From NCBI GenBank assembly GCA_023362775.1, contig JALMGJ010000003.1:182191725-182255724 (forward strand): a stretch of 64,000 bases of DNA. The letters are read 5' to 3'. This stretch comes from Charina bottae. Its lineage: Eukaryota > Chordata > Lepidosauria > Squamata > Charinaidae. The translations under genes were made by a program, and so were the position numbers. The first letter of the stretch is position 1. The number at the start of each line of letters is the position of its first letter. Positions 7,881 to 46,583 of this stretch are shown piece by piece. The notes under the pieces were generated by a model. That model ran no database searches. It had not been told where the DNA came from and saw nothing but the letters and a program-made list of their open reading frames with translations.

Positions 7881-8989
7881 ACACAGTAACTGCAGTAGAA
7901 TGGATAGAATTTGCTTTGTTGTTGGATTTACTTACGATTTCTTACCAAGTATATGGTCACCACTTCGCAAGTCTGGGCTTGTTCTATTGTATTCCTTTTG
8001 ATTCCCCATTCCAAATCCCCCAGTTTCTTTCGATAACAAATTTGCCTTGATTTTTGACCACTTGGCTGACTTGTAGGTGATTGTCGTCTGAGACCAACTT
8101 CATGGCATTTATTCCTTCTCCCCATGCTGATCTGTAGTATTTCCTCACTTAGTCTATAGTTTCCCTTTCTTTTCTCCTTTTCACTCTTCCTTATTTCCCC
8201 AATATACTGTACCTGCAAATATTTTCAGGTATTTATGTGTTTAATATAGTTTGAGTATATTAAGGGTGAGTAAAGCAGCAATTAAAAACAAAAGACAGAG
8301 AGCAAAGAAAAGTTGGTGTTAACTGGATCAGCAACTGCAATATAATCTCTATATCTGCAGTATCAAAATATATGAGAAGTCTAGACTTAACTTTCAGGGT
8401 TTATTTTGATTAAATGTCATATCTCTCCTTCTGAGGAGCAGAAATGATTACACCTACATTGTAGAAGAAGATGGGAAGACGGGAAATACGGTAGACTTAT
8501 CACAACCTGGGAAATGAGATATGGACACGTTCACATTAATGTCTATAGCCTGATCCAGAAATTTGCTTTTCAAAACCTCAGTATTATAAATCTAAGTGTT
8601 AGCTGAATCAGCAACAAACACACACACACACTCAATGATATCTAGAGAACAGCATTAATTACAAACTCTATGCAGCACTTGCTACAACCGCCAGAGATTC
8701 AGTCTTTGTATTAAAGTAACAATAATGAAATTTAATTGACTTTTTTCAGGGCAGTAATGCATTTTCTCTTAGAGAACCATATCCTTTTGAAGATTTAGCT
8801 TTCTACTGCATAGGACTGATGATGCAGTGATATTCAGTTTATAATTATATTTTGTTAACTACCACATGCCATATTTTTGCTCCTTAGAATGATGCCAGAG
8901 CTAAATTAGAAATCTTTTCAAAAGTTTTTTTATTGCTTAACAATCATAGAAAATGGAGATGGTTAAATATTTAATATTTCATATTCTAA
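7881..8989. other. Unassigned AT-rich sequence
   Basis: No gene or repeat recognised apart from a short CA run near 8619. Confidence 0.4.
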
Positions 8990-23369: not shown

Positions 23370-23420
23370 GGAGAAGGAGAAGGAGAAGGAGAAGGAGAAG
23401 GAGAAGGAGAAGGAGAAGGA
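23370..23420 (+). repeat. (GAGAAG)n microsatellite, left flank of the Tx1-like element
   Basis: About eight GAGAAG units abut the 3' end of the element. The same hexamer resumes at 32764, so the element sits inside one microsatellite. Confidence 0.95.
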
Positions 23421-23454
23421 AACGACACGATATTTAGGAAACGACACGATATTT
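23418..23454 (-). repeat. Two 18-bp tandem copies at the 3' terminus of the Tx1-like element
   Basis: ggaaacgacacgatattt occurs at 23418-23435 and 23437-23454, a 19-bp period. On the element's strand this is the last sequence before the (TTCTCC)n target. It may be the recognition or priming motif of the RT, or the scar of template slippage at insertion. Confidence 0.85.
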
Positions 23455-23458
23455 TATT
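23453..23458 (-). terminator. Polyadenylation signal AATAAA of the Tx1-like element
   Basis: The plus strand has tttatt, giving AATAAA on the element's strand about 35 bases before its 3' end. Its position suits cleavage at or near the element terminus. Confidence 0.55.
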
Positions 23459-23672
23459 GGTTAAAACCCTCCTACAACCGGCCCTGGCACGCCCCCAGTG
23501 GGAACGGGCGGCCGGGCCCACGGGAATGAAGACAACAAAAAACACTCCGGACTGGAGAAACGCAACAAAAAAACCCCCACACGCCCACCGGCAAACCCGC
23601 CGCCCACCAAAGTCATCCTTGGGAAAACCCCAGAGTCAGTCCGGCCGGGAAGGCCCACAGGGAAAGCCGCGC
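23459..23672 (-). other. 3' UTR of the Tx1-like element
   Basis: The segment between the ORF2 stop (TGA at 23673-23675) and the polyadenylation signal. It is GC-rich near ORF2 and AT-rich at the end. In LINEs this region usually carries the RT recognition structure. Confidence 0.7.
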
Positions 23673-26600
23673 TCACGTGATCGGCGGCGGGGAGGGCGCC
23701 CGCTCACGCCACGGCCACAGCCGCCGCCAGCGCTCCTCGGGAAGCCGCTCGCGCTCGGCGGCACGGATCCAGGCCGCCCGGTCGGCGATGCGCTCTGCCT
23801 CCTCCGACGCCCAGTCCACTGGCGGGGCGCCGCCAGCCCGCTCCACGCGCAGGTGCCGAGTCCGAAGCTGGCACAGCGCATGGAGGACGAGATAATTCAG
23901 GATCCGCAGCGTCGACCAGGGCAAGGCCGGCAGCCGCCGCCACCGCCGCCGCCCCACCACTTGCGCTGCCACCGCCAGTCCAGAGCCACCTGCGTGACCC
24001 CCACCACCGGCGGCGCCGCCTCCGTCGCCTCCGTCGGTGGTGCTGGCTGCTCCGCCGCCGCCGTCCTCCGCGGCTCCGCCAGAGGCCGCACCGATGCCAC
24101 CGCCGTCAGGGCCCCCGTCTCCGCCGCTCTGTCCGGGCGAACCTACAGCAGGGGGAAGCGGGAGAGGAAGAGGGGCCGGGGGCACGGGCGCCCGTGAAGG
24201 GCCAGCCACGGGGGGGAGGGGGGGGAGGGAGAAGGCCCCGGGGTCCTCCAGCCCCGAGACCAGCTGCAGCCATGGCTGGCCGTCCAGCTCCGGCCGCCCG
24301 AAGCGGCACGCCACCGCCGCCCAGAGCGCGCGCGCCTCCGGGCACTCAGCGACAAAGTGCCGCACGTCATCCTCGGGCACGGCGCCGGCCGCGCCGGCCG
24401 CCAGCGCTGTGGCGGTGCAGACTGCGCGCGGGCACAGGCGCGCCTCCCCGCGCGCCCACGGCTGCGCCGCCGGCTCCCGCAGCACCTGGTGGTACGCCCG
24501 CCAGCGAGTCTCCCAGTAAAGGTACGGGAGCCGCCGGTCGGTGAAGGGCTCCAGCGGGCCTGCCGGCGGCGCCCGGTAGCCTGGCAGGCGGCCCGCCGCC
24601 ACCCGCCGCCGCGCCGCCGCCCGCCACGGCCCCGTGATGGCACGCTCCAGCGCCTCTGCCGTCACCTCCACCCGCATCGTGCGGCGCCGGATGGCCACCT
24701 CCCGGCCCGGCACACCCGCCGCCGCCTCCCGCCAAGAGGGGTGGAAGTGGGCCGCCGGGATGCAGTACCGGCGCAGGACGGCGGGCAGCTCCGCCAGGAA
24801 TGCAGGCAGGCAGCCACGGTCCGGGCCCGAGACACGGAAGGCGCAGGTCCCGCCGCGCCACCAGCGCGTCTCGCCCCAGTCGCTGCCCCACCAGTGGGCC
24901 AGGAACAGCGCCGCCCAGAGCGCCGGTACGCGACCAGCCGGCGGCGGCACCGCCCGCCCCGCGCCTGGTGGCGGGAGTAGCTCGGACGCGCTGCCCAGGT
25001 TCTGCGCCAGGAAGCGCCCCCACAGCGCCAGGTCCAGTGCCGGCAGTCCAAGGCCGCCCTCGCGCACCGGCAGGTATGCGACAGCCCGCGCCAGGGGGAA
25101 GAACGCTGTGCCCCACAGGAAGGCGAACCACCCAGGAGTCACCCGGCGCAGGAAAGCGTCCGGCGGCGGGTAGACCGCTGCCAGGTGCGCCACCTGCGGG
25201 AGCAGGTAGGTGCGCAGGTAGGCGGCCCGCTTGAACAGCGGCAGCCGCCAACGCCGCCAGCGCGCCCAGCGCGCCTCCCAGCGCTCGGCGCAGCGGTCCC
25301 AGTTCTCCACCCAGGCGTCCGGGTGGAGGCCATAGCGAACACCCAGGACACGCACCGTGCGCGTAGGCATGGCCGCGACCGCCACCCCGGCCAGGGCGGC
25401 GCGGGCCACGCTCGGCCCCGTGCCCTCCCCCCACCACTCCGCGACTGGCCAGCGGCGCAACACGCCGTCACCCGCGGCTGGTGGCTCAAGGGCCACGACC
25501 CAGCTCTTGCGGTCGTTGACCTGGGCCCCCGAGGCCGCCTCATAACCGCGCAAGACCTCCCTCGCCCGCTGGCCCTCCGTGCGCGAACACACCAGGAGGG
25601 AGATGTCGTCGGCATGGGCGAGGAAGCGCACCCCGCGTGCCGCGCCGCCCCGCAGCCCCACTGGGCACGGGAAGCCCGCCAGACCGCCATCACGCTCCAG
25701 CCCCCACAGCGCCACGTCCAGCGCGAGGACGTACAGCAGCGGGCTCAGGGGGCAACCCTGCCGCACGCCCGAGCGCACCGGGATTGGCGCGCCGCGCGCA
25801 TTGTTCACCTGCGGGACGACCGTCGCCCTGGCGTACAGCAGCCGGACCAGCGCCACGAAGTCCCCGGGGACCCCGTGCCACGCCAGCGCCCGCCACAGGA
25901 AGGCGTGGCGGACGCGGTCAAAAGCGCGCGACTGGTCCATCTGCAGCAGGAAGCCCCGCCACTCCCCCCGGCCTGCCCGGCAGAAGACCTCACGCAGGAG
26001 GCAGAGGGAGTCCGCGATGCTGCGGCCCAGTAGTGCGCTGGTCTGGGTGGGCACCATGCGCGGCCCCACCGCGGCGGCCAGCTGGTCCGAGAGGATGCGT
26101 GCCAGCGCCCGGTAGTCCACGTTGGTGAGGACGATGGGGCGCCAGCTGGCAGGCAGCGTGCGGTCGAGGTCCCCCGGCTTGGTGAAGAGCAGGAGGATGC
26201 TCTGGTACAGCGACCCTGGCAGCCGACCGCTGCCCGCGCGCGCCCCCGCCGCGCAGCCCTCGTAGAGCGCCGCCATCGGCGCGGCCAGCAGGTTGGCGTA
26301 CGCCCCGTAGAAGGCCCAGCCCAGGCCGTCCGGGCCCGGGGCGGAGCGGCGGCGCCCTACGCGCAGCACCGCTCGCACCTCCTCCACCGTGAACGTGCCG
26401 CCGAGCGCGGCGAGGCGGGCCGCTGTGTCTGCACCGCCGCCGCCCGGCGGGCGCAGGGGCGCAAAGAACTCCTCCACGCCCGCGTCCCCCTCGTCCGCCC
26501 GCCCCGCGAACAGTACCCGGTAGAACCGGTCGACCACCGCCAGCATACCCCTCTCGTCGGTGCGCAGCGGCGCAGCAGGGTCGTCCCGGAGCGCCTCCAC

Positions 26601-28079
26601 GAAGGCCGCCGTGCCCGCCGAGGGCACGTCTTCATCAGCGGCCGCCGGCGCCGGCTGGGCGCCACGCCCCCGCTCCTCCCAGCCGTCGGCGCCCACCGGG
26701 CCACCCGCCGTGCGCGCGAAGTGCCGGAAGAAGCGGACGCGCCGCCGGGCTGCATGGAATCCGGCGATGACGCGGCGTGCCCGCTCCAGCCACTCCCCCT
26801 CCACCGGCGAGCCCTCGCGCACCCGCACATGGCAGCCAAGGAACACTCGCACCGCCGCCTGGTACCGCGCCAGGTCCCGCCGCGCGCGGCGACCCTCCCA
26901 CCGCTGGCAGAAAACACGCACGTCCCGCTTGACCCGCTCCCACCACTCGGAGAGGCGGGCCGAGCCGTACACGTCCCGCAGGGAGAGGCGCTCCTCGAGG
27001 AGGCGCGCGAGCCCGCCCCGCAAGCCCGCATCCCCGTCCAGCTTGGCGGCGGTGAGGCGCCAGAGCGGCCGCCGCGCCCCCGGCCGGCCCGCCATCTGCA
27101 GCGCTACCTGCACCAATGCGTGCGTGGACCAGGGTGTGACCAGCACACGGCAGGAGCGCACCGGGCAGCCCCGCGGTGCCCACACGCGGTCGAGCCGCGC
27201 CGCCACCGCCGCCCCGTAGTGGGTGCAGAAGGGCGGTGGATGTGCCGTGCACGGCCCCGCCCCAACCGCCGTCACCTCGTCGGCCCCCTCCGCCGCTCCC
27301 GCCTCCGCCTCCGCCCGGGCGACCCCCGGCGGAGCTGGAAAGAAGCCCAGGGCATTGGGCACGGTGAGCGCCACGTCCACCAGCCCACTCTCCGCGCGGA
27401 CGGCCTCCGCATAGCGCTCCTCGGTCGAGAGCGGCGGGCTGTACGCCGAGGCCGGGCGCGTGCCCGCGCCCTCCGACCCCCCGCAGCGTCCGGCCACCCG
27501 CAGTGGGACGCGGTCCTGGGGGACTGCGCGGTTGTTAAAGTCCCCCGCCACAAGCAGCGAGCGCCACGTCGCGCAGGCTGCGCGCAAGCGCACCCACAGG
27601 TCGCGGCGTGCCGCCGCCGAGGAGGCCGACGCGTACAGCGCACAGAGGCGGAATGCGCGCCAGCTGAGTGGGTCGTCCGGCCCACGCGGACCCGCCGCAG
27701 TGCTGCCCGCCTCCTCCGCCGCTACCACCTCGAAATCGAGGACGGCCAGCCGGCCCGGCACCTCCTCCACATAGCGCTGGAGGCGCAGGCCGGGGCCGCC
27801 GCGCACAAGGATGCCCACGCCCGCCCAGCCCTCGGTTCCGTAACTCCAGAAGGAGGGGCCCGCGGGCCACAGGCGCTGGGCCGCGGCGCGGTGGCGCTCG
27901 TCCAGGAGGTGTGTCTCCTGGAGGACGAGGATGTCTGCGGGGAGTTCCCGCAGCGCCCCCAAGAGCTCCTCTCGCCGCACCGCCTGCCGCAGCCCGCCAC
28001 AGTTCCACGTGGCCACCACGAACGTCCCCGAGCGAGACCGCGGGGGGGACAGTGACGACTCCCGCTGTGTCCCCGCCAT
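23673..28079 (-). CDS. Tx1-like ORF2: APE endonuclease / reverse transcriptase / zinc finger
   Basis: An open frame of 1,468 residues from a true ATG at 28079; an in-frame TGA lies 24 nt upstream (28104-28106), which fixes the start. Residues 20-325 are an APE-type endonuclease: WNCGG (N26), QETHL (E55), GDFN (D180, N182), RLDRVW (D297) and WSTH (S318, H320); the usual SDH is STH. Residues about 500-860 are the RT: RSAPGPDGL, WRPIVL, LQMDQSRAFDR (D715), GVRQGCPLSPLLY and AHADDISLL (D824, D825). The active-site box is HADD, not YADD or FADD. Near the end CPRAVC..HFVAEC (C1216, C1221, H1241, C1246) matches the L1-type C-terminal zinc finger. A Gly/Ala/Pro-rich linker (about 1285-1365) precedes a basic tail. 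The enzyme would nick the target and prime cDNA synthesis. No frame damage is seen. Confidence 0.9.
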   Translation of the reverse strand: MAGTQRESSLSPPRSRSGTFVVATWNCGGLRQAVRREELLGALRELPADILVLQETHLLDERHRAAAQRLWPAGPSFWSYGTEGWAGVGILVRGGPGLRLQRYVEEVPGRLAVLDFEVVAAEEAGSTAAGPRGPDDPLSWRAFRLCALYASASSAAARRDLWVRLRAACATWRSLLVAGDFNNRAVPQDRVPLRVAGRCGGSEGAGTRPASAYSPPLSTEERYAEAVRAESGLVDVALTVPNALGFFPAPPGVARAEAEAGAAEGADEVTAVGAGPCTAHPPPFCTHYGAAVAARLDRVWAPRGCPVRSCRVLVTPWSTHALVQVALQMAGRPGARRPLWRLTAAKLDGDAGLRGGLARLLEERLSLRDVYGSARLSEWWERVKRDVRVFCQRWEGRRARRDLARYQAAVRVFLGCHVRVREGSPVEGEWLERARRVIAGFHAARRRVRFFRHFARTAGGPVGADGWEERGRGAQPAPAAADEDVPSAGTAAFVEALRDDPAAPLRTDERGMLAVVDRFYRVLFAGRADEGDAGVEEFFAPLRPPGGGGADTAARLAALGGTFTVEEVRAVLRVGRRRSAPGPDGLGWAFYGAYANLLAAPMAALYEGCAAGARAGSGRLPGSLYQSILLLFTKPGDLDRTLPASWRPIVLTNVDYRALARILSDQLAAAVGPRMVPTQTSALLGRSIADSLCLLREVFCRAGRGEWRGFLLQMDQSRAFDRVRHAFLWRALAWHGVPGDFVALVRLLYARATVVPQVNNARGAPIPVRSGVRQGCPLSPLLYVLALDVALWGLERDGGLAGFPCPVGLRGGAARGVRFLAHADDISLLVCSRTEGQRAREVLRGYEAASGAQVNDRKSWVVALEPPAAGDGVLRRWPVAEWWGEGTGPSVARAALAGVAVAAMPTRTVRVLGVRYGLHPDAWVENWDRCAERWEARWARWRRWRLPLFKRAAYLRTYLLPQVAHLAAVYPPPDAFLRRVTPGWFAFLWGTAFFPLARAVAYLPVREGGLGLPALDLALWGRFLAQNLGSASELLPPPGAGRAVPPPAGRVPALWAALFLAHWWGSDWGETRWWRGGTCAFRVSGPDRGCLPAFLAELPAVLRRYCIPAAHFHPSWREAAAGVPGREVAIRRRTMRVEVTAEALERAITGPWRAAARRRVAAGRLPGYRAPPAGPLEPFTDRRLPYLYWETRWRAYHQVLREPAAQPWARGEARLCPRAVCTATALAAGAAGAVPEDDVRHFVAECPEARALWAAVACRFGRPELDGQPWLQLVSGLEDPGAFSLPPLPPVAGPSRAPVPPAPLPLPLPPAVGSPGQSGGDGGPDGGGIGAASGGAAEDGGGGAASTTDGGDGGGAAGGGGHAGGSGLAVAAQVVGRRRWRRLPALPWSTLRILNYLVLHALCQLRTRHLRVERAGGAPPVDWASEEAERIADRAAWIRAAERERLPEERWRRLWPWRERAPSPPPIT

Positions 28080-31000
28080 AGCAGGCCGTGAGCAGGGAGC
28101 GCCTCACGGGGAGGCGGCGCCGGGCCCCTGAAGGCCCCCCGAAGCCAGAGCAGGCTCGACAGATAGATGCCCCCCGGAGCCGCCGGACACAGCCAGCGAC
28201 ACGGCCGACCGGCCCTCCCCGCCCGCGGCGGCCATGGCTGCCCCACCCACCCTGCCACTCCGAGAAGCTCGGGCCGGCGTGGGAGGCTCGGAAGCACCCC
28301 CAGACGACGACGGGCTCTCAGACCCTGACGGGAGGGACAAGCGAATTGGGGACGCCGTGGAGGAAGAAGAGGTAAAGGAGGAGATGGGCGTGGCTCCCCC
28401 CCCCGAGTCTGCCCATCCACTGCCGCCCGCCCGCGTTCGGGTGTCCCTTCCCGGGACGAACACACCCCCTCAGGAGGGATATAGTCCTCCCCCAGTCCCA
28501 AGCCGGCCACCACGGACGGGGCGCCCGGCCCCTCCAAGACCTGCTCCCGTGACCCCCCTGGGTCCGCCGCACAGCCCGAAGGGGCCGCTTCTGCCCCCAA
28601 GCCACTGACAGCCCCCGGACTCCCTGATGACAAGCCCCCTTCCTCGGAGGAGAGTCCGTAGTCCAGGGCTGGGAGAAGGAGTTGGGCCACATCGGCCCCC
28701 GCCACCGCCGGCGCCGGCTCCGCTCCCTCGGGCGGCCCGGGACCTGCCTGGGCCCGCAGCACCCGGCCAGTCAGCGTCCCCTCAACCAGCTGCCGCGGGC
28801 GAGCGAGGGACACGGGAGCCGTAGGCTCATCCCTGGCCCGGGCAGCCGGTTCGGCCGGCTCTGCAGAGGCCGCAGACCTATGCCCCAGGACGGCGAAGCG
28901 GTTCCCGACCGCCCACGCAGGCCCCGCTGCCGCCCTCTGCGGCCGGCCCGGTGTCGCGCCCGGCGAGGCCCGGGAGCGCTTGGGCCGCTCCGCCTCGTCA
29001 CTGGACCGCCGCCGGCGGACCGCCCGGAAGTCCCCGGTGCCAGCCACCTCCATCGCCTCCTCAGGGCCACCCCCCGGCGGCACGTGCGGCCCCGCCCCAG
29101 GCGACTCGGGGCACTCAGCCCGCCCGGCACCACAGGTCCCAGGCCCGCCGGCCGCCGGCCCCGCCGCCGGCTCCAGGCCGTCCGCGGCAGCCCCGCCATG
29201 CGGGGCGGGCCGCTCCGCCGCCTCCTCCGATGCCCCATCTGCCGTCTCTTCCGCCCCTGGCGCCCCGCCGGCCGTAAACCTCTGCGAACCTCTGTTGCAG
29301 GCCGCCCGCGGGCAGCTGGCGTAAGTGTGGCCCTGCTCGCCGCAGAGGTTGCAGCGGACCGCTGCCTGGCACGCTGATGCGACGTGCCCCCGTGCCCCGC
29401 AGCGCGCACAGAGCGGCGTGGTACAGGTCCGCCTCTGGTGGCCATAGCCGCCACAGGAAAAGCAGGCGGGCGGCTGCCCAGCGTAGCGCGTCACGCCCCG
29501 CTCAGCCCCCAGGTAAAAAAACCTGGGGAGCCGCCGGGACCCCCCCGGGGCGAAGCGGAGCAAGGCGCGCACCTCCCCTGTCCAGATGCTCGCCTCGTCC
29601 CGCACCTTGGCCGGTGGCGCGAGCAGCGCGCCGAACCGGCCCAGCCAGGTGGCGATGTCCTGCAGCGGCACGAGGTGGGACCGGAAGAAGACAACCACCT
29701 GCCGCACATCGCCCTCGACAAGCGAGGTGACACGGAAGCCGTCAAAGAGCCGCGGCTGGACAGTCGCCAGGTCGCGGCAACCCAGCACGAAGAGGGAGAA
29801 GGCCGCAAAGGAGACAAAACAGACGTCCACCTCCCTCGACTCTGGGGGCCTGATGACGGCGGCGAGCAGCTCCACGGGGAAATCCAGGCCCTTGCAGATC
29901 ACCTCCCGAACGAGGTGGCGCCGCGGCTCGAAGCCTGCGTCCCCCCCCACATAGCGGAAGCGGAGGACATACCGCTCCCGTGAGGGGCCCGCTGACGATG
30001 GCCGGCCAGCCTCCCCTGCCCAGGGCTCCTCCGATGGCCCCCAGTCAGGGGACGGGCCTGCGCCCACGGAGTCGAGGATCTCGTCCAGATCATTGCGGGC
30101 GGAGCCGCCCCCGCCGGAACCGGCGGGTTGCCGAGAAGGCCCGGGCCTCGCAGCACCGGGCCCCCCTGCCCCGCCGCCCGCCACCGATGCATACGACGGC
30201 GCCAGCCGTGCCCCCGGAGGCCCCTCACCCTCGCCGGCCGTCGCCGACTCGTGACGCTGCGGCCGTACTTCCTCTGCGCCCCCTGCGGCGGGCCCGGCCC
30301 TTGGAGGTGAGGGTGGGGAGGCAACCGGGCCTGCACGCGACTCCCCCGCGCCCCTCCCGGGCGGCTCTGGGGCGGACCGCCGTCCCTCCGGGCCGCGCCC
30401 CGGCCCTTCCGATCTCAAATCCCCCGTCTCCCCCGGAGGGGCCCCAGCCAGCACCCGGGGAGCCCGCAGGGCCCTCTGCGGGAGCGGGCTCACGGGACGC
30501 TCCCCCGACCCAACTGCCGCGCCTGTGGTCTCTGAATCCCCGGGGACAGCCCCGTCCGACCGGTCCCCTAGCAAAGCCGGGCGCCGTGCATCGAACCGGT
30601 CCGCCACGGAGCTGCGGCGGGCCCGGCCCTCCGACGCGCCCTCAGCAGCACCCGACCCCGAGCGCAACAAGCGCGTGCTAGCCGCCGCCGAGGGGCCGCG
30701 TGCCGCCCCCTGGCCAGACGCACCGCGGTGCCGGCGGCCACCCCGCCGATGCCGCACAGATGAGCCCCCGCCAGGCGGCTGAACCGCCCTGCCCTCACTG
30801 CCGGAACGAGCCACCGCCCCCTCCTCTGAGGCACGAATCCGTCGTCCCCGGCTCTGGAGCGCCACCACGACGGCGTCCAGCCAGGCCCCATAGTCGGGGG
30901 CAGACAGGGCCGAGAGGACAGACCCGGCTTGCTGGCCGACGGGGACCTCCGCACCCGCGGCCGCCTGCCAGCCCCTGGAAACCTCCTGGAAGGCCCGGAG

Positions 31001-32281
31001 GAGGCCCTGCTCCGTCAGCCACAGGGGCCAGGACGTCTCACCCCGCGGCTTCCGGCCCACCAGCAGCCGCTCCACAGCCACCAAGGTTAGCGAGCGTGCC
31101 ACCGACGCACGCTCATACGCAGGGCCCGGTACCGGGAGCCCATCCCGCAGAACGGTCAGCAGGGGCTCGAGCTCGCGCTCCAAGACGGCCCAGAAGCGGG
31201 CCTGGCTGCACTTTGAGAGGGCCGGGACCGGCACCCGCGGGAGGCGCACGTGACCCACCACCAGCCCCCAGAAGCGGAGGAGGACCACCGCCGCGTCCTG
31301 CTCCTTTGCGAGGTACGCAGTGGGCAGCGTGCTCAGGGGCGCTGCCAGATCCCGCAACCACCCCTCCCGGATGATGGCCTCCCGCGAGCCGGGGGTCCCC
31401 TGCGAAGAACCGCCCGCATCACTGCCATCGCCCCACGAGGTGGAACGGCCGAACCCGCCGGAGCCCTCCTGCGAGCGGCTGCGAAAGGGGGAACGGTCCC
31501 GCCCAGCGGACCCCGCCCGGCCCCCCGAGGGAGAGGCCGAGGAGCAGCGGCGCCCCGCTACTGACCGCCCACCACCGGCGCGGCCCAACTCCCGCCGGCG
31601 ACCCCGTAAGGGGTCAAGAGCGGCCGGCACCTCCTCCATCGAGGACCCTGGTGAGGAGCCCCCTGTCCAGCCCATACTCTCCCCCGCCTGAGAGGAGTCG
31701 CTCCCCATATCCGAGGGGAGCCCCCACACCCGCGGGCCCGAGACTACGGCCCGCCGGGCACCATCCGGGCCGACGAGGCCCCCCAAGAAAGAAACCAGCC
31801 CCTCACGCTGCGCTGGGGCGTCACGTGGAGCCCCCACACACCCCGCAGGGGCAGGGCCAGCGCTCCCCGAAGCGGGAGGACCCGCTTGCCCCTCCTCCCC
31901 GGGTGCCGCAGCCCCCCCCGCCACAAGCGTGGCCGGGCCCGACTGCGCCACCCCCGGGGGCCCCCCCAACAAACCACCAGATCCCTCCACCAGCGCGGAC
32001 CCCCCAGGTACTGCCCCAGCACCGAGCCCGAGGGAAGAGGAGAGCGGGGAGGGACCACAAGCCTGTCCCTGCGAAGAAGGCAAACTGGCCTCCTCGTGAG
32101 TCGTAGGGGTCCCAGCCGGCTCGGTAAGCGACTCACGAGGAGTCCCATCAGAAACAGCAGCAGGGCTGCCCTGCACCCCGACTGAGCCCGTACGGAGCCC
32201 AACTAAGGTGGGGACACCGCCAGGAGTGCTTGGGGGGGGTGGCCCCCACCCCCCCTGCCACGCGGGGGGGCCGCACCGCAC
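27722..32281 (-). CDS. Tx1-like ORF1: nucleic-acid-binding protein with three CCHC knuckles
   Basis: An open frame of 1,519 codons. Low-complexity Gly/Ser/Pro-rich sequence (1-300) is followed by a folded-looking segment (301-492, Trp/Leu-rich), disordered sequence, an RNA-binding-like region (about 768-930) and three CX2CX4HX4C zinc knuckles (C940-C953, C958-C971, C977-C990; DNA 29464-29312). The codon at 32281 is GTG and an in-frame TGA lies at 32294-32296. The true start may therefore be the ATG at 32312 in another frame, with a one-base change in the intervening G8 tract, or Met192. The frame overlaps ORF2 by 358 nt; the overlapping tail may be a frameshift artefact (see findings). The role is inferred as RNP formation with element RNA. 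Confidence 0.8.
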   Translation of the reverse strand: MRCGPPAWQGGWGPPPPSTPGGVPTLVGLRTGSVGVQGSPAAVSDGTPRESLTEPAGTPTTHEEASLPSSQGQACGPSPLSSSLGLGAGAVPGGSALVEGSGGLLGGPPGVAQSGPATLVAGGAAAPGEEGQAGPPASGSAGPAPAGCVGAPRDAPAQREGLVSFLGGLVGPDGARRAVVSGPRVWGLPSDMGSDSSQAGESMGWTGGSSPGSSMEEVPAALDPLRGRRRELGRAGGGRSVAGRRCSSASPSGGRAGSAGRDRSPFRSRSQEGSGGFGRSTSWGDGSDAGGSSQGTPGSREAIIREGWLRDLAAPLSTLPTAYLAKEQDAAVVLLRFWGLVVGHVRLPRVPVPALSKCSQARFWAVLERELEPLLTVLRDGLPVPGPAYERASVARSLTLVAVERLLVGRKPRGETSWPLWLTEQGLLRAFQEVSRGWQAAAGAEVPVGQQAGSVLSALSAPDYGAWLDAVVVALQSRGRRIRASEEGAVARSGSEGRAVQPPGGGSSVRHRRGGRRHRGASGQGAARGPSAAASTRLLRSGSGAAEGASEGRARRSSVADRFDARRPALLGDRSDGAVPGDSETTGAAVGSGERPVSPLPQRALRAPRVLAGAPPGETGDLRSEGPGRGPEGRRSAPEPPGRGAGESRAGPVASPPSPPRAGPAAGGAEEVRPQRHESATAGEGEGPPGARLAPSYASVAGGGAGGPGAARPGPSRQPAGSGGGGSARNDLDEILDSVGAGPSPDWGPSEEPWAGEAGRPSSAGPSRERYVLRFRYVGGDAGFEPRRHLVREVICKGLDFPVELLAAVIRPPESREVDVCFVSFAAFSLFVLGCRDLATVQPRLFDGFRVTSLVEGDVRQVVVFFRSHLVPLQDIATWLGRFGALLAPPAKVRDEASIWTGEVRALLRFAPGGSRRLPRFFYLGAERGVTRYAGQPPACFSCGGYGHQRRTCTTPLCARCGARGHVASACQAAVRCNLCGEQGHTYASCPRAACNRGSQRFTAGGAPGAEETADGASEEAAERPAPHGGAAADGLEPAAGPAAGGPGTCGAGRAECPESPGAGPHVPPGGGPEEAMEVAGTGDFRAVRRRRSSDEAERPKRSRASPGATPGRPQRAAAGPAWAVGNRFAVLGHRSAASAEPAEPAARARDEPTAPVSLARPRQLVEGTLTGRVLRAQAGPGPPEGAEPAPAVAGADVAQLLLPALDYGLSSEEGGLSSGSPGAVSGLGAEAAPSGCAADPGGSREQVLEGPGAPSVVAGLGLGEDYIPPEGVCSSREGTPERGRAAVDGQTRGGEPRPSPPLPLLPPRRPQFACPSRQGLRARRRLGVLPSLPRRPELLGVAGWVGQPWPPRAGRAGRPCRWLCPAAPGGIYLSSLLWLRGAFRGPAPPPREALPAHGLLWRGHSGSRHCPPRGLARGRSWWPRGTVAGCGRRCGERSSWGRCGNSPQTSSSSRRHTSWTSATAPRPSACGPRAPPSGVTEPRAGRAWASLCAAAPACASSAMWRRCRAGWPSSISRW

Positions 32282-32296
32282 CCCCCCCGCCCGTCA

Positions 32297-32763
32297 ACGA
32301 AGAAGCAGCCATGACCCAGGCTCACAACAACCACCAGGAAGGGGAGCGAAAGGGAAGGAAGCACCCGGAAAAAAACCCCAACAAAGGGACAGGGGGCCCA
32401 ACAACGACCCCCCTTGCTCCAAGGAGCCGTCCCCGTGGGGCAGGGAAAAAAAAACCCCAAAAAAACGCCCCCAAAACCCAAACAAACTCCAACAAACAGG
32501 CAAAAAAGCCCAGGGAGATGAGAAACAGCTGGGACAAAATGGCCCCCACCAAACTCAAACAGGGAAATGGGGAGAGAGAAAAACGGCCCCCAAACGCCCC
32601 AGAGGGGACCAGGACCACCCCCCCTGCGACGGGGGGGTGCCCCACGCCTTCCCACAACAGGGGCTACCAAACAGCCCCGCCTCCCACTGCTCTAAATGCC
32701 CCAAAAACCTCCAAACAAGGGCTGGCTAGGCTGCAGCTGTTACAAGACAGGTAGCTCCGCCTC
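32297..32763 (-). promoter_or_regulatory. 5' leader of the Tx1-like element, presumed internal promoter
   Basis: The leader starts ggaggcggagctacctg directly after (TTCTCC)n on the element's strand. It contains GC-box-like gaggcggggctg near the 5' end and long T-, G- and C-rich tracts. LINE leaders normally hold an internal promoter, but no specific promoter element is proven here. The ATG at 32312 (context gtcATGg) is the first good start codon before ORF1. Confidence 0.5.
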
Positions 32764-32823
32764 CAGAAGGAGAAGGAGAAGGAGAAGGAGAAGGAGAAGG
32801 AGAAGGAGAAGGAGAAGGAGAAA
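32764..32823 (+). repeat. (GAGAAG)n microsatellite, right flank of the Tx1-like element
   Basis: About ten GAGAAG units directly abut the element's 5' end, in the same phase of hexamer as 23370-23420. Confidence 0.95.
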
Positions 32824-40902: not shown

Positions 40903-41940
40903 AGTACCTTTTAGTTTTTTTACATAACCATCCCATATGATAAAACGTTCCTTCTTTGTTATGGCATTTCCAACATCTATTGCTATATGATTAGTCTAAC
41001 TTGGTAATTATTGATGGAGTTATATACATACCATCTGTAAAACATTTTATACCAATTTTCCCTTAAATTATAGCTTGGAATGAACTTTATTGATTTTTTT
41101 CCATTACTCTTCCCCTTCCAGTACTGTGATTATTTCTTTGAAGTTCTGCATCCACTTTATCATACAATTTTTTATTGTTCCATCTCTGTGTTATATTTCA
41201 ATATGGGCGGTTATATAAATTTAATTAAATAAAAATAAATAAATACACTTGAATAAGTGTTTCAAATTCTATCATCTTTTTTAAAGTCCCTCCTTTCTTG
41301 AAATCACTTTTTATTCTTCCAGCAATTTGTAAATACATCAGCCATGGTAAATTCCTACCTTCATTTATTATATTTGCTTTTCACTGTATTTTTCCTTTGG
41401 TTTTATATTTTTATCCACCTAGAGTTGTTTAAAAATATAAAACCAAAGGAAAAATACAGTGAAAAGCAAATATAATAAATGAAGGTAGGAATTTACCATG
41501 GCTGATGTATTTACAAATTGCTGGAAGAATAAAAAGTGATTTCAAGAAAGGAGGGACTTTAAAAAAGATGATAGAATTTGAAACACTTATTCAAGTGTAT
41601 TTATTTATTTTTATTTAATTAAATTTATATAACCGCCCATATTGAAATATAACACAGAGATGGAACAATAAAAAATTGTATGATAAAGTGGATGCAGAAC
41701 TTCAAAGAAATAATCACAGTACTGGAAGGGGAAGAGTAATGGAAAAAAATCAATAAAGTTCATTCCAAGCTATAATTTAAGGGAAAATTGGTATAAAATG
41801 TTTTACAGATGGTATGTATATAACTCCATCAATAATTACCAAGTTAGACTAATCATATAGCAATAGATGTTGGAAATGCCATAACAAAGAAGGAACGTTT
41901 TATCATATGGGATGGTTATGTAAAAAAACTAAAAGGTACT
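40903..41940. repeat. Large palindrome: two 511-bp arms, 16-bp spacer
   Basis: The left arm 40903-41413 and the right arm 41430-41940 are reverse complements; every block compared by eye matches exactly. The spacer is 41414-41429. The 17-mer tccacctagagttgttt lies at 41414-41430 and again at 41943-41959, just outside the right arm. This is the layout expected if synthesis switched template, copied the left arm backwards and returned to the same point. Each arm also carries an L2-type tail (gggcggttatataaattt). Confidence 0.92.
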
Positions 41941-42419: not shown

Positions 42420-44011
42420 CTCTGGGGGAGGGAGTGTTCCCGGCAGCCTTTAAGGAGGCGTTGGTGCACCCCCTCCTCAAGAAGTCATCCCTGGACCCTA
42501 CCGTACTGGACAATTTTCGTCCTGTCTCCCACCTTCCCTTTTTGGGAAGGGTGGTTGAGAAAGTGGTGGCACTGCAACTTCAGAGGATCCTGGAGGAAGC
42601 AAATTATCTAGACCCCTTTTAGTCAGGTTTCAGGCCGGGATATGGGATGGAGACTTATGGATGATCTCTGGCGAGGGTGGGATGGAGGGAGTGCATCCAT
42701 CCTTGCTCTCTTAGATCTCTCGGCGGCTTTTGATACCATCGACCATGGTATCCTTCTGGGATGGCTCAGGGAGTTGGGGGTGGGCGGGGTAGTTTTACGC
42801 TGGTTCACCTCCTTTCTCCAGGGCCGTTCCCAATCGGTGGTGATAGGAGAGGAGAGATCTGACCCGCGACCCCTCTTATGTGGGGTGCCGCAGGGTTCGG
42901 TGCTCTCCCCTCTCCTGTTTAACATCTATATGAAGCCGCTGGGTGAGATCATCCGTCACCACAGGATGAGCTATCATCAATATGCGGATGATACTCAACT
43001 GTATATCGCCATCCCAGGTGAAGTAAGTGATGCAGTCGATACCCTTTCTCACTGCCTGGGGGCTGTGGGGGTCTGGATGGGGAACAACAGGCTTCAGCTG
43101 AACCCTGGTAAGACAGAGTGGCTGTGGATTAATGGCCTCTTGGGTTCCAGGAAGTTGTCGTCTTTGGTCCTGGATGGGGTAGCACTGCCCCATTCAGAGT
43201 TGGTGCGGAACTTGGGGGTCCTCCTAGACTTACGTCTCCTGCTTGAAGAGCAGGTGGCAGCCGTGGCCAGGAGGGCCTTTGCACAACTTCGGGTTGTGCG
43301 CCAGTTGCGCCCATTCCTGGATCAAGATGCCCTCCGAACAGTCACTCATGCCCTTGTCATCTCCCATATTGACTACTGCAATGAGCTCTACATGGGGCTA
43401 CCCTTGAAGAGTATCCGGAAGCTTCAGCTGGTCCAGAATGCGGCCGCGCGGACAGTTATGGGTGCTGTAAGATCGGCCCATGTAACACCTCTGCTGCGCG
43501 AGCTGCATTGGGTACCAGTTTGCTTCCGGGTCCAATTCAAGGTGTTGGTTATCACCTTTAAAGCCCTACATGGCATGGGAGCAGGTTACCTGAGGGACCA
43601 TCTCATCCCCGGAACATCGACCCGCCCCACTCGTTCATGCAGAGAGGGCATGCTAAGGATCCCATCGGCTAAAGAGTTCCATCTAGCGGGATCCAGGAGA
43701 CGTGCCTTCTCTGCAGTAGCACCCGCCCTTTGGAATATCTTGCCCCTGGAGCTGAGGCGAGTTTCTTCACTCCCGACCTTCCGGAAAGACCTGAAGACCT
43801 GGTTCTGCCGCCTGGCTTGGGACGGGAATGCCAATAGTTCCTCTTGGGAGTGGCTGGCGCCATGAAACCCGCCTTATTATTAACATCTTTTTGTTTGGAT
43901 TTTATATGTAAATTATTGTGGCTGTAATTTTATATTTTTATCTTATCTTATTATTGTGAACCGCACAGAATCCCCAGGTGTGGAGGAGATGGGCGGTGAT
44001 ACAAATTTAAG

Positions 44012-45804: not shown

Positions 45805-46118
45805 AATAAAATAGGACAGTTTAGTGCATCTATGCAGTTGATGCATTTTGAGCGCACCTACAATTTCAATGAAAGGAAAACTATTGTGTACATTCAGATT
45901 AACATAATATTTACATTCCGCAAAATTAGAAACATTCAAGATGTAACATCCCTTTCATTTCAATAATAATTTACAATTTCAAAATGGTCCTTTTCTCATT
46001 TCTGAAAGCAGTACTGAAATATGATTCTAAATATATCTATGAAGGTTCTCAGTCATCCAGGTGGAATTGTCTGTAGCTTGAATCATGTCAACTGGATTTC
46101 TATTTTCTCAGTGGAAAC

Positions 46119-46149
46119 GTTTCGCTCCTTATCCAAGGAGCTTCTTCAG
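46119..46149 (-). ncRNA. Hammerhead ribozyme-like core (PLE terminus)
   Basis: On the minus strand CTGAAGA, then AGCTCCTTGGATAAGGAGC (a 7-bp perfect stem II, GCTCCTT/AAGGAGC), then GAAAC and GTTTCC. All invariant core bases are kept. Confidence 0.6.
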
Positions 46150-46216
46150 TCTGAGCAAAGTTAGTAAGGGAATCCTAAATATGTTTCTAGCCATTCCCTT
46201 ACTAACTTTGCTCAGA

Positions 46217-46247
46217 CTGAAGAAGCTCCTTGGATAAGGAGCGAAAC
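46217..46247 (+). ncRNA. Hammerhead ribozyme-like core (PLE terminus)
   Basis: Same core as 46119-46149 on the plus strand: CTGAAGA, perfect 7-bp stem II, GAAAC. Confidence 0.6.
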
Positions 46248-46583
46248 GTTTCCACTGAGAAAATAGAAATCCAGTTGACATGATTCAAGCTACAGACAAT
46301 TCCACCTGGATGACTGAGAACCTTCATAGATATATTTAGAATCATATTTCAATACTGCTTTCAGAAATGAGAAAAGGACCATTTTGAAATTGTAAATTAT
46401 TATTGAAATGAAAGGCATGTTACATCTTGAATGTTTCTAATTTTGCGGAATGTAAATATTATGTTAATCTGAATGTACACAGTAGTTTTCCTTTCATTGA
46501 AATTGTAGGTGCGCTCAAAATGCATCAACTGCATAGATGCACTAAACTGTCCTATTTTATTTCCCTTACTAACTTTGCTCAGA

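What the first reader, a model, noticed from the sequence alone, without database searches (positions are those of the whole stretch)
23370..32823. Apparently intact Tx1-like LINE inserted inside a (GAGAAG)n hexanucleotide microsatellite
The sequence shows the same GAGAAG hexamer abutting both ends of a 9.3-kb unit with two ORFs open for more than 1,400 codons each. Established knowledge: the Tx1 branch includes target-specific families, among them ones that use microsatellites. Inference: the endonuclease or RT recognises (TTCTCC)n, so this would be a hexamer-specific microsatellite LINE in a squamate. The open frames imply recent activity.
Basis: partly seen in the sequence, partly recalled or inferred. 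Interest (0 to 1): 0.9.

Follow-up and report, generated by a model that had tools for sequence, protein, structure and literature searches.

The report
Jumping gene that targets six-base repeats
A young, GC-rich LINE retrotransposon in what looks like a lizard or snake genome inserts mainly into runs of the six-base repeat CCTTCT, at one fixed position within the repeat, and at least once into telomere-type repeats, which makes it a natural system for studying how such elements choose and change targets.

Summary
A 9,344-bp LINE (window 23421-32764, minus strand; 74% GC) lies between (CCTTCT)n arrays. ORF2 is intact (1,468 aa: L1-type endonuclease plus reverse transcriptase). ORF1 is not: relative to a sister copy it has a 1-bp insertion and a 16-bp deletion, so this copy is not 'apparently intact'.

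The window's own assembly supports targeting. Of 41 scored copies I read 40 three-prime junctions: 38 begin CCTTCY, one CCTTTC then (CCTTCC)n, one is telomeric (CCTAAC)n. Genome-wide, 131 of 149 exact 3' ends continue as a 16-base pyrimidine tract, 108 of them as CCTTCYCCTTCYCC; two continue CCTAAC. All 27 five-prime ends read follow CCTTCT, at one register. One 5'-truncated copy has telomeric repeats on both sides, so the arrays are target, not an element-borne tail.

Near-full-length copies differ by 0.6-2.4%; dN/dS is about 0.5: recent activity. RT and endonuclease group with L1; Tx1 membership could not be tested for lack of a named reference. No empty site was seen. Best reading: a hexanucleotide-microsatellite-specific LINE, a new variant of the known microsatellite- and telomere-targeting LINEs.

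The parts
23421..32764 (-). LINE element, 9,344 bp
   Evidence: Other copies in the assembly have the same two ends
23370..23420 (-). Target array (CCTTCT)n on the 3' side of the element
   Evidence: same array type at most other 3' junctions
32765..32822 (-). Target array (CCTTCT)n on the 5' side of the element
   Evidence: 27 of 27 five-prime ends read, this one included, follow CCTTCT
23417..23454 (-). Duplicated 19-bp terminal unit at the 3' end, overlapping an AATAAA; no poly(A) tail
   Evidence: at least two units in 30 of 30 copies parsed
23673..28079 (-). ORF2, 1,468 aa, intact: endonuclease plus reverse transcriptase
27126..28013 (-). Endonuclease domain (ORF2 residues 23-318)
25338..26153 (-). 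Reverse transcriptase domain (ORF2 residues 643-914)
   Evidence: Pfam PF00078 E 5.8e-26
28104..32312 (-). ORF1 region; ORF1 is 1,407 aa in the reference copy, with ZCCHC3-type RNA-binding domains and a CCHC knuckle; frameshifted here
32313..32764 (-). 5' UTR of the element
   Evidence: Position relative to the ORF1 ATG

Best explanation
It is a recently active LINE with an L1-type apurinic-like endonuclease that inserts specifically into hexanucleotide arrays, mainly (CCTTCT)n/(AGAAGG)n. Shown: arrays at both ends of many copies with unrelated outer flanks, one fixed register at both junctions, and a change of array type on both sides of one copy (telomeric). Inferred: the endonuclease nicks the purine-rich strand at a fixed point in the repeat, leaving a primer ending in or near GG; the element RNA, whose 3' end reads ...CGUUUCC, pairs with it and reverse transcription starts there; the second end joins in the same register further 5' in the array. 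Repeats with a similarly spaced GG, such as GGGGAA and GGGTTA, are used occasionally. The duplicated 3' unit is best explained by repeated starts or slippage during priming.
For: 3' junctions: 40 of the 41 copies were read, the window copy among them: 38 begin CCTTCY, one CCTTTC then (CCTTCC)n, one CCTAAC repeated. Row 41 lies in the CCTTCY list. Genome-wide, exact 3' ends number 149 (reversed-pattern control 6). 108 run into CCTTCYCCTTCYCC (control 0), 131 into 16 uninterrupted pyrimidines (control 0), 2 into CCTAAC (control 0). 5' junctions: 27 of 27 read follow CCTTCT, 26 exactly and one with a base change. Target, not tail: truncated copy L035 has telomeric repeats on both sides; truncated copy L040 has hexamers on both sides. 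Separate insertions: among 3' flanks of 30 copies and 5' flanks of 19, matches at E <= 1e-5 are the arrays themselves or dispersed repeats at differing offsets, not colinear flanks. In two cases a second element lies inside the same array (L042; L057). Activity: pairwise difference 0.56-2.40% among 11 near-full-length copies; dN/dS 0.52 (ORF1) and 0.46 (ORF2), means over 55 pairs. Priming: the last unit reads CGTC instead of CGTT in 4 of 30 copies and the inner unit in 0 of 30, as if that base came from the target.
Against: No empty (pre-insertion) site could be examined, and cleavage was not assayed. 149 - 131 - 2 = 16 exact 3' ends are followed neither by 16 pyrimidines nor by CCTAAC; at least 3 are inner units of triple repeats (adjacent places), so up to 13 are unexplained: decayed arrays, other targets or chance matches. 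For one of the two CCTAAC places (C1:168072460) only those six bases were seen, not an array. Of three truncated copies with a readable 5' flank, one (L032) has (TC)n rather than hexamers upstream. A target-site duplication cannot be seen inside a perfect array. Exact-match counts favour young copies.
Confidence: 0.9

Rival explanations
1. The hexamers are the element's own 3' tail (as in LINEs ending in short tandem repeats), and the 5' array is a target-site duplication or was co-inserted; the target itself would be arbitrary.
For: CCTTCT follows most 3' ends in variable copy number, as a slippery tail would; LINEs and SINEs with microsatellite-like 3' ends are known in squamates (PMC13295347, passages seen).
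Against: Copies ending directly in (CCTTCC)n or telomeric (CCTAAC)n carry no CCTTCT tail (L003, L006, L020). L035 has telomeric repeat on both sides although it is 5'-truncated. Several arrays pass into imperfect pyrimidine tracts before unique sequence.
Confidence: 0.05
2. The element is hexamer-specific, but the 5' array of copies with a complete 5' end is partly carried on the RNA: transcription starts in the donor's upstream (CCTTCT)n and the copied hexamers help join the 5' end to the target by homology.
For: Two copies with a complete 5' end and a (CCTTCC)n 3' array still have (CCTTCT)n at the 5' end: L049/L020 and L069/L055, the latter pair 4.3 kb apart and taken as one internally deleted copy. 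The two truncated copies in non-CCTTCT targets do not (L032, L035). 5' arrays have 4-7 perfect units in 11 of 16 copies, whereas 3' arrays spread from 1 to 16 in 30 copies.
Against: Only four informative copies. Truncated copy L040 also has CCTTCT upstream of a mixed array, so mixed arrays exist by themselves. A minimum footprint upstream of the nick gives the same pattern: SART1Bm needs at least three TTAGG units and inserts only in the third of three (PMC7265360, abstract and passages).
Confidence: 0.25
3. Few real insertions; most copies arose by segmental duplication of one insertion together with its microsatellite.
For: The scored copies are 95-100% identical at the 3' end, and clusters exist, such as C24:32.15-32.16 Mb.
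Against: 3' flanks of 30 copies and 5' flanks of 19 copies are not colinear with one another beyond arrays and dispersed repeats.
Confidence: 0.02

Closest known systems
Microsatellite-specific LINEs of the Tx1 clade (Kojima and Fujiwara 2004; title seen only in reference lists; family names Kibi and Koshi are recalled)
   Same: As recalled, L1-related RT with apurinic-like endonuclease and insertion restricted to a simple repeat
   Different: As recalled, those target di- or trinucleotide repeats; here a hexamer with a fixed register and an occasional telomeric array. No named Tx1 sequence was available for a direct comparison
SART1Bm and TRAS1 of Bombyx mori (telomeric TTAGG; R1 clade is recalled)
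   Same: Fixed-register insertion into a short G-rich tandem repeat; SART1Bm also tolerates (TTAGGG)n (PMC7265360, abstract and passages seen)
   Different: SART1Bm has a poly(A) tail at the 3' junction, this element has none; the main target here is a non-telomeric hexamer
Togen families of fish ((TG)n) and some HERO families (microsatellites) (PMC4640811, passages seen)
   Same: Microsatellite-specific non-LTR retrotransposons in animals
   Different: Related to NeSL and HERO, clades with a restriction-like endonuclease; this element has an apurinic-like one
Human LINE-1 ORF2p
   Different: L1 prefers 5'-TT|AAAA-3' sites (PMC13295347 passage) and, as recalled, ends in poly(A); this element is array-specific without poly(A)

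Membership tests
LINE (non-LTR retrotransposon) with apurinic-like endonuclease | APE-like endonuclease and reverse transcriptase in one ORF2, no LTRs | tested here: met
L1/Tx1 group | RT closer to L1 than to R2-like LINEs | tested here: met
   Profile of the window RT and 3 relatives: L1 ORF2p E 5.2e-75 against R2 9.6e-36
Tx1 clade | RT branches with named Tx1-clade families | not testable with these tools
   No row named as Tx1 among the hits; the tree holds only unnamed or host-named rows
Target-specific LINE | Most insertions in the same target sequence | tested here: met
   40 of 40 read 3' ends in hexamer arrays, three of them soon irregular; 131 of 149 genome-wide in a pyrimidine tract plus 2 at CCTAAC
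Target-specific LINE | Fixed insertion point within the target unit | tested here: met
   27 of 27 five-prime ends read follow CCTTCT; 37 of 40 three-prime ends read CGTYT/CCTTCY, exceptions L006, L055, L058
Target-specific LINE | Encoded endonuclease cleaves the target | not testable with these tools
   Needs a biochemical assay

The most novel reading that the evidence does not exclude
A vertebrate LINE whose machinery reads a G-rich hexamer pattern (GG every six bases, as in GGAGAA, GGGGAA and GGGTTA), so that telomeric-type arrays are genuine secondary targets; a natural intermediate between microsatellite and telomere specificity. The CGTTT-CCTAAA inside the duplicated 3' unit, which resembles the telomeric junction CGTTT-CCTAAC, may be a remnant of an earlier telomeric phase.
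Probability: 0.2. Interest if true: 0.75.

Novelty: new variant of a known kind. Interest (0 to 1): 0.6.

Why it matters
[quoted passage not shown] Here a young family, probably in a squamate, with about 149 recognisable 3' ends, a register-fixed hexamer target, graded off-targets (CCTTCC, telomeric repeat) and a 3' end that seems to pair with the target makes the question testable. It may also mark a low-harm niche for a large LINE, since new copies can land in an already occupied array (inference).

Tried and rejected
Intrinsic tail and segmental duplication were considered and set aside (see rivals). 3' UTR folding gave no unusual stability (z +1.23), so no structural 3' recognition element is claimed. 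A within-window empty site was sought and not found. A named Tx1 reference was looked for in two protein searches, each of which scored only the roughly 7,990 candidates sharing most words, and not found. The RT tree shows the window with Liasis (100/100) inside an 8-row clade (100/100) of squamate rows, one tick row (Nuttalliella) and one unnamed row (P0017); the squamate label is not a single clade there. That tree used 31 of the 88 rows that covered the RT core (101 in all). No TRAS1 or R1 endonuclease appears among the 50 rows shown by each fold search; this excludes nothing. Genome-wide counts of 5' ends and of empty (CCTTCT)n arrays were planned; the 5' count was sent repeatedly and not answered, the empty-array count was never sent.

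Papers: listings (open-access library only) showed no paper on a hexamer-specific Tx1/L1-like LINE in titles or abstract starts; that is weak evidence of absence. Passages seen: PMC3747384, PMC13295347, PMC4640811, PMC8869645, PMC5035012, PMC7943196, PMC7265360 (its abstract too). PMC85248 and PMC88784 are not held.

Full report
What is there. The window holds a 9,344-bp element on the minus strand (23421-32764) between two perfect hexamer arrays (23370-23420 and 32765-32822). In element orientation the arrays read (CCTTCT)n. The element is 73.8% GC with CpG o/e 0.89, against 40.8% and 0.34 for the rest of the window. It has a 5' UTR, an ORF1 frame with two ZCCHC3-type RNA-binding domains and a CCHC knuckle, ORF2 with endonuclease and reverse transcriptase, and a 3' UTR ending in AATAAA and a duplicated 19-bp unit without poly(A).

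Correction on intactness. In sister copies ORF1 starts at the ATG at element position 453-455; in L038, used as reference, it is 1,407 codons long and its stop lies 24 nt before the ORF2 ATG. In the window that ATG gives 54 codons. Relative to L038 there is a 1-bp insertion, and a 16-bp deletion further on makes the remaining frame run into ORF2. ORF2 (1,468 aa) is undamaged here. Among 11 near-full-length copies, window included, one has both ORFs free of frameshifts and four have an undamaged ORF2. Pairwise differences are 0.56-2.40% and dN/dS averages 0.52 for ORF1 and 0.46 for ORF2 over 55 pairs, broken copies included. The family has been active recently, whatever the state of this copy.

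Targeting, 3' side. A search of the window's own 1.80-Gb assembly with the last 300 bp found 193 candidates, of which 40 were scored, giving 41 matches at 95-100% identity, the window copy included. I read the flank of 40. Thirty-eight begin CCTTCT or CCTTCC, one (L055) CCTTTC followed by (CCTTCC)n, one (L006) is the telomeric repeat (CCTAAC)n. Three of the 38 (L017, L028, L058) pass quickly into irregular pyrimidine tracts. Row 41 is among the hexamer-followed places. Pattern counts over the whole assembly: 149 exact double-unit 3' ends (reversed-pattern control 6, so a few may be chance), 108 followed by CCTTCYCCTTCYCC (control 0), 131 by 16 uninterrupted pyrimidines (control 0), 2 by CCTAAC (control 0). 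Of the remaining 16, at least three are inner units of triple repeats (adjacent places, whose listing stops at 100); up to 13 are unexplained. Exact matching favours young copies.

Targeting, 5' side. Of the 20 copies in L031-L050, 16 have a complete 5' end, three are 5'-truncated and one (L037) was not covered. With eight short pieces (L061-L068), L069, the second element in L057 and the window, 27 five-prime ends were read. All follow CCTTCT; 26 are exactly CTCCTTCT/GGAGG and one (L047) has a base change. At the 3' side 37 of 40 read CGTYT/CCTTCY. The register is therefore fixed at both ends.

Target or tail. The decisive copies are the odd ones. L035 (same copy as L006) is cut off at element position 8444, yet has telomeric repeats on both sides; L040, cut off at 8870, has hexamers on both sides; L032 has (TC)n upstream and (CCTTCC)n downstream. 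A tail carried by the element does not explain matching arrays upstream of truncated copies or a change to telomeric repeat. In L042 and L057 one element follows another inside a single array, 13 and 5 hexamers apart. Flanks of 30 copies (3') and 19 copies (5') show no colinear match beyond arrays and dispersed repeats at E <= 1e-5.

Mechanism. By analogy with target-primed reverse transcription (established for this class), the purine-rich strand is nicked at a fixed point and its 3' end primes on the RNA end ...CGUUUCC. Two observations fit. First, the base next to the junction is C in the last unit of 4 of 30 copies but in no inner unit of 30, as if it came from the target. Second, all 30 copies parsed have at least two terminal units, with a variable A run between them, and adjacent hits indicate three units in some; repeated priming or slippage would do this. 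The perfect 5' array has at least three units in 14 of 16 copies. Either a minimum footprint is needed, as in SART1Bm (at least three TTAGG units; PMC7265360), or the RNA carries hexamers at its 5' end. Both copies with a complete 5' end and (CCTTCC)n downstream have (CCTTCT)n upstream, which leans to the second but is only two copies.

Family. RT and endonuclease are L1-like, and seven residues conserved in the endonuclease alignment are present. The best protein hit is from Liasis olivaceus (66% identity over 47% of the query); the second is filed under the tick Nuttalliella namaqua (36% over 98%), then Anolis and Varanus. An RT tree groups window and Liasis with support 100/100. This supports a squamate host; the assembly itself is unnamed. 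No row named Tx1 was found, so Tx1 membership is untested. In APE-encoding LINEs target specificity is reported for the Tx1 and R1 clades (PMC4640811 and PMC13295347, passages), which makes Tx1 the likely home.

Novelty. Microsatellite-specific LINEs are known (PMC4640811, passages; Kojima and Fujiwara 2004 by its title in reference lists). A register-fixed hexanucleotide target with a telomeric off-target in a vertebrate did not appear in the titles or abstract starts listed, a library limited to open-access papers. I rate it a new variant of a known kind.

Noticed in passing
G000 C1:238559506 (L006, L035) and C1:168072460: One copy sits in a telomeric-type (CCCTAA)n array about 16 Mb from the end of a 254.6-Mb contig, that is, in an interstitial telomeric repeat; a second 3' end reads CCTAAC, its array not seen.
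   Followed up: partly
P0002: A protein filed under the tick Nuttalliella namaqua is 36% identical over 98% of the ORF2 query and branches among squamate elements: host-blood contamination or horizontal transfer.
   Followed up: no
L042 and L057: Tandem insertions: a second element lies 13 (L042) or 5 (L057) hexamers downstream of another in the same array.
   Followed up: partly
L036 and L037 (G000 C24:32.14-32.17 Mb): Two copies about 15.6 kb apart in opposite orientation, each with an inverted 382-bp piece of the 3' region next to its ~885-bp 3' end; looks like a rearranged inverted pair.
   Followed up: no
window 40903-41940 and 45805-46561: Near-perfect inverted self-matches (99% and 98%) in the self comparison, as expected of long palindromes or palindromic mobile elements.
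   Followed up: no
window 42612-43862 and 213-815: Other RVT_1-like fragments (E 5e-24 and 7e-5, the second below Pfam's cut-off), perhaps older retroelement remnants.
   Followed up: no
Near-full-length copies: Many copies differ by internal deletions of 12-104 bp, which may be real or assembly effects in GC-rich sequence.
   Followed up: no
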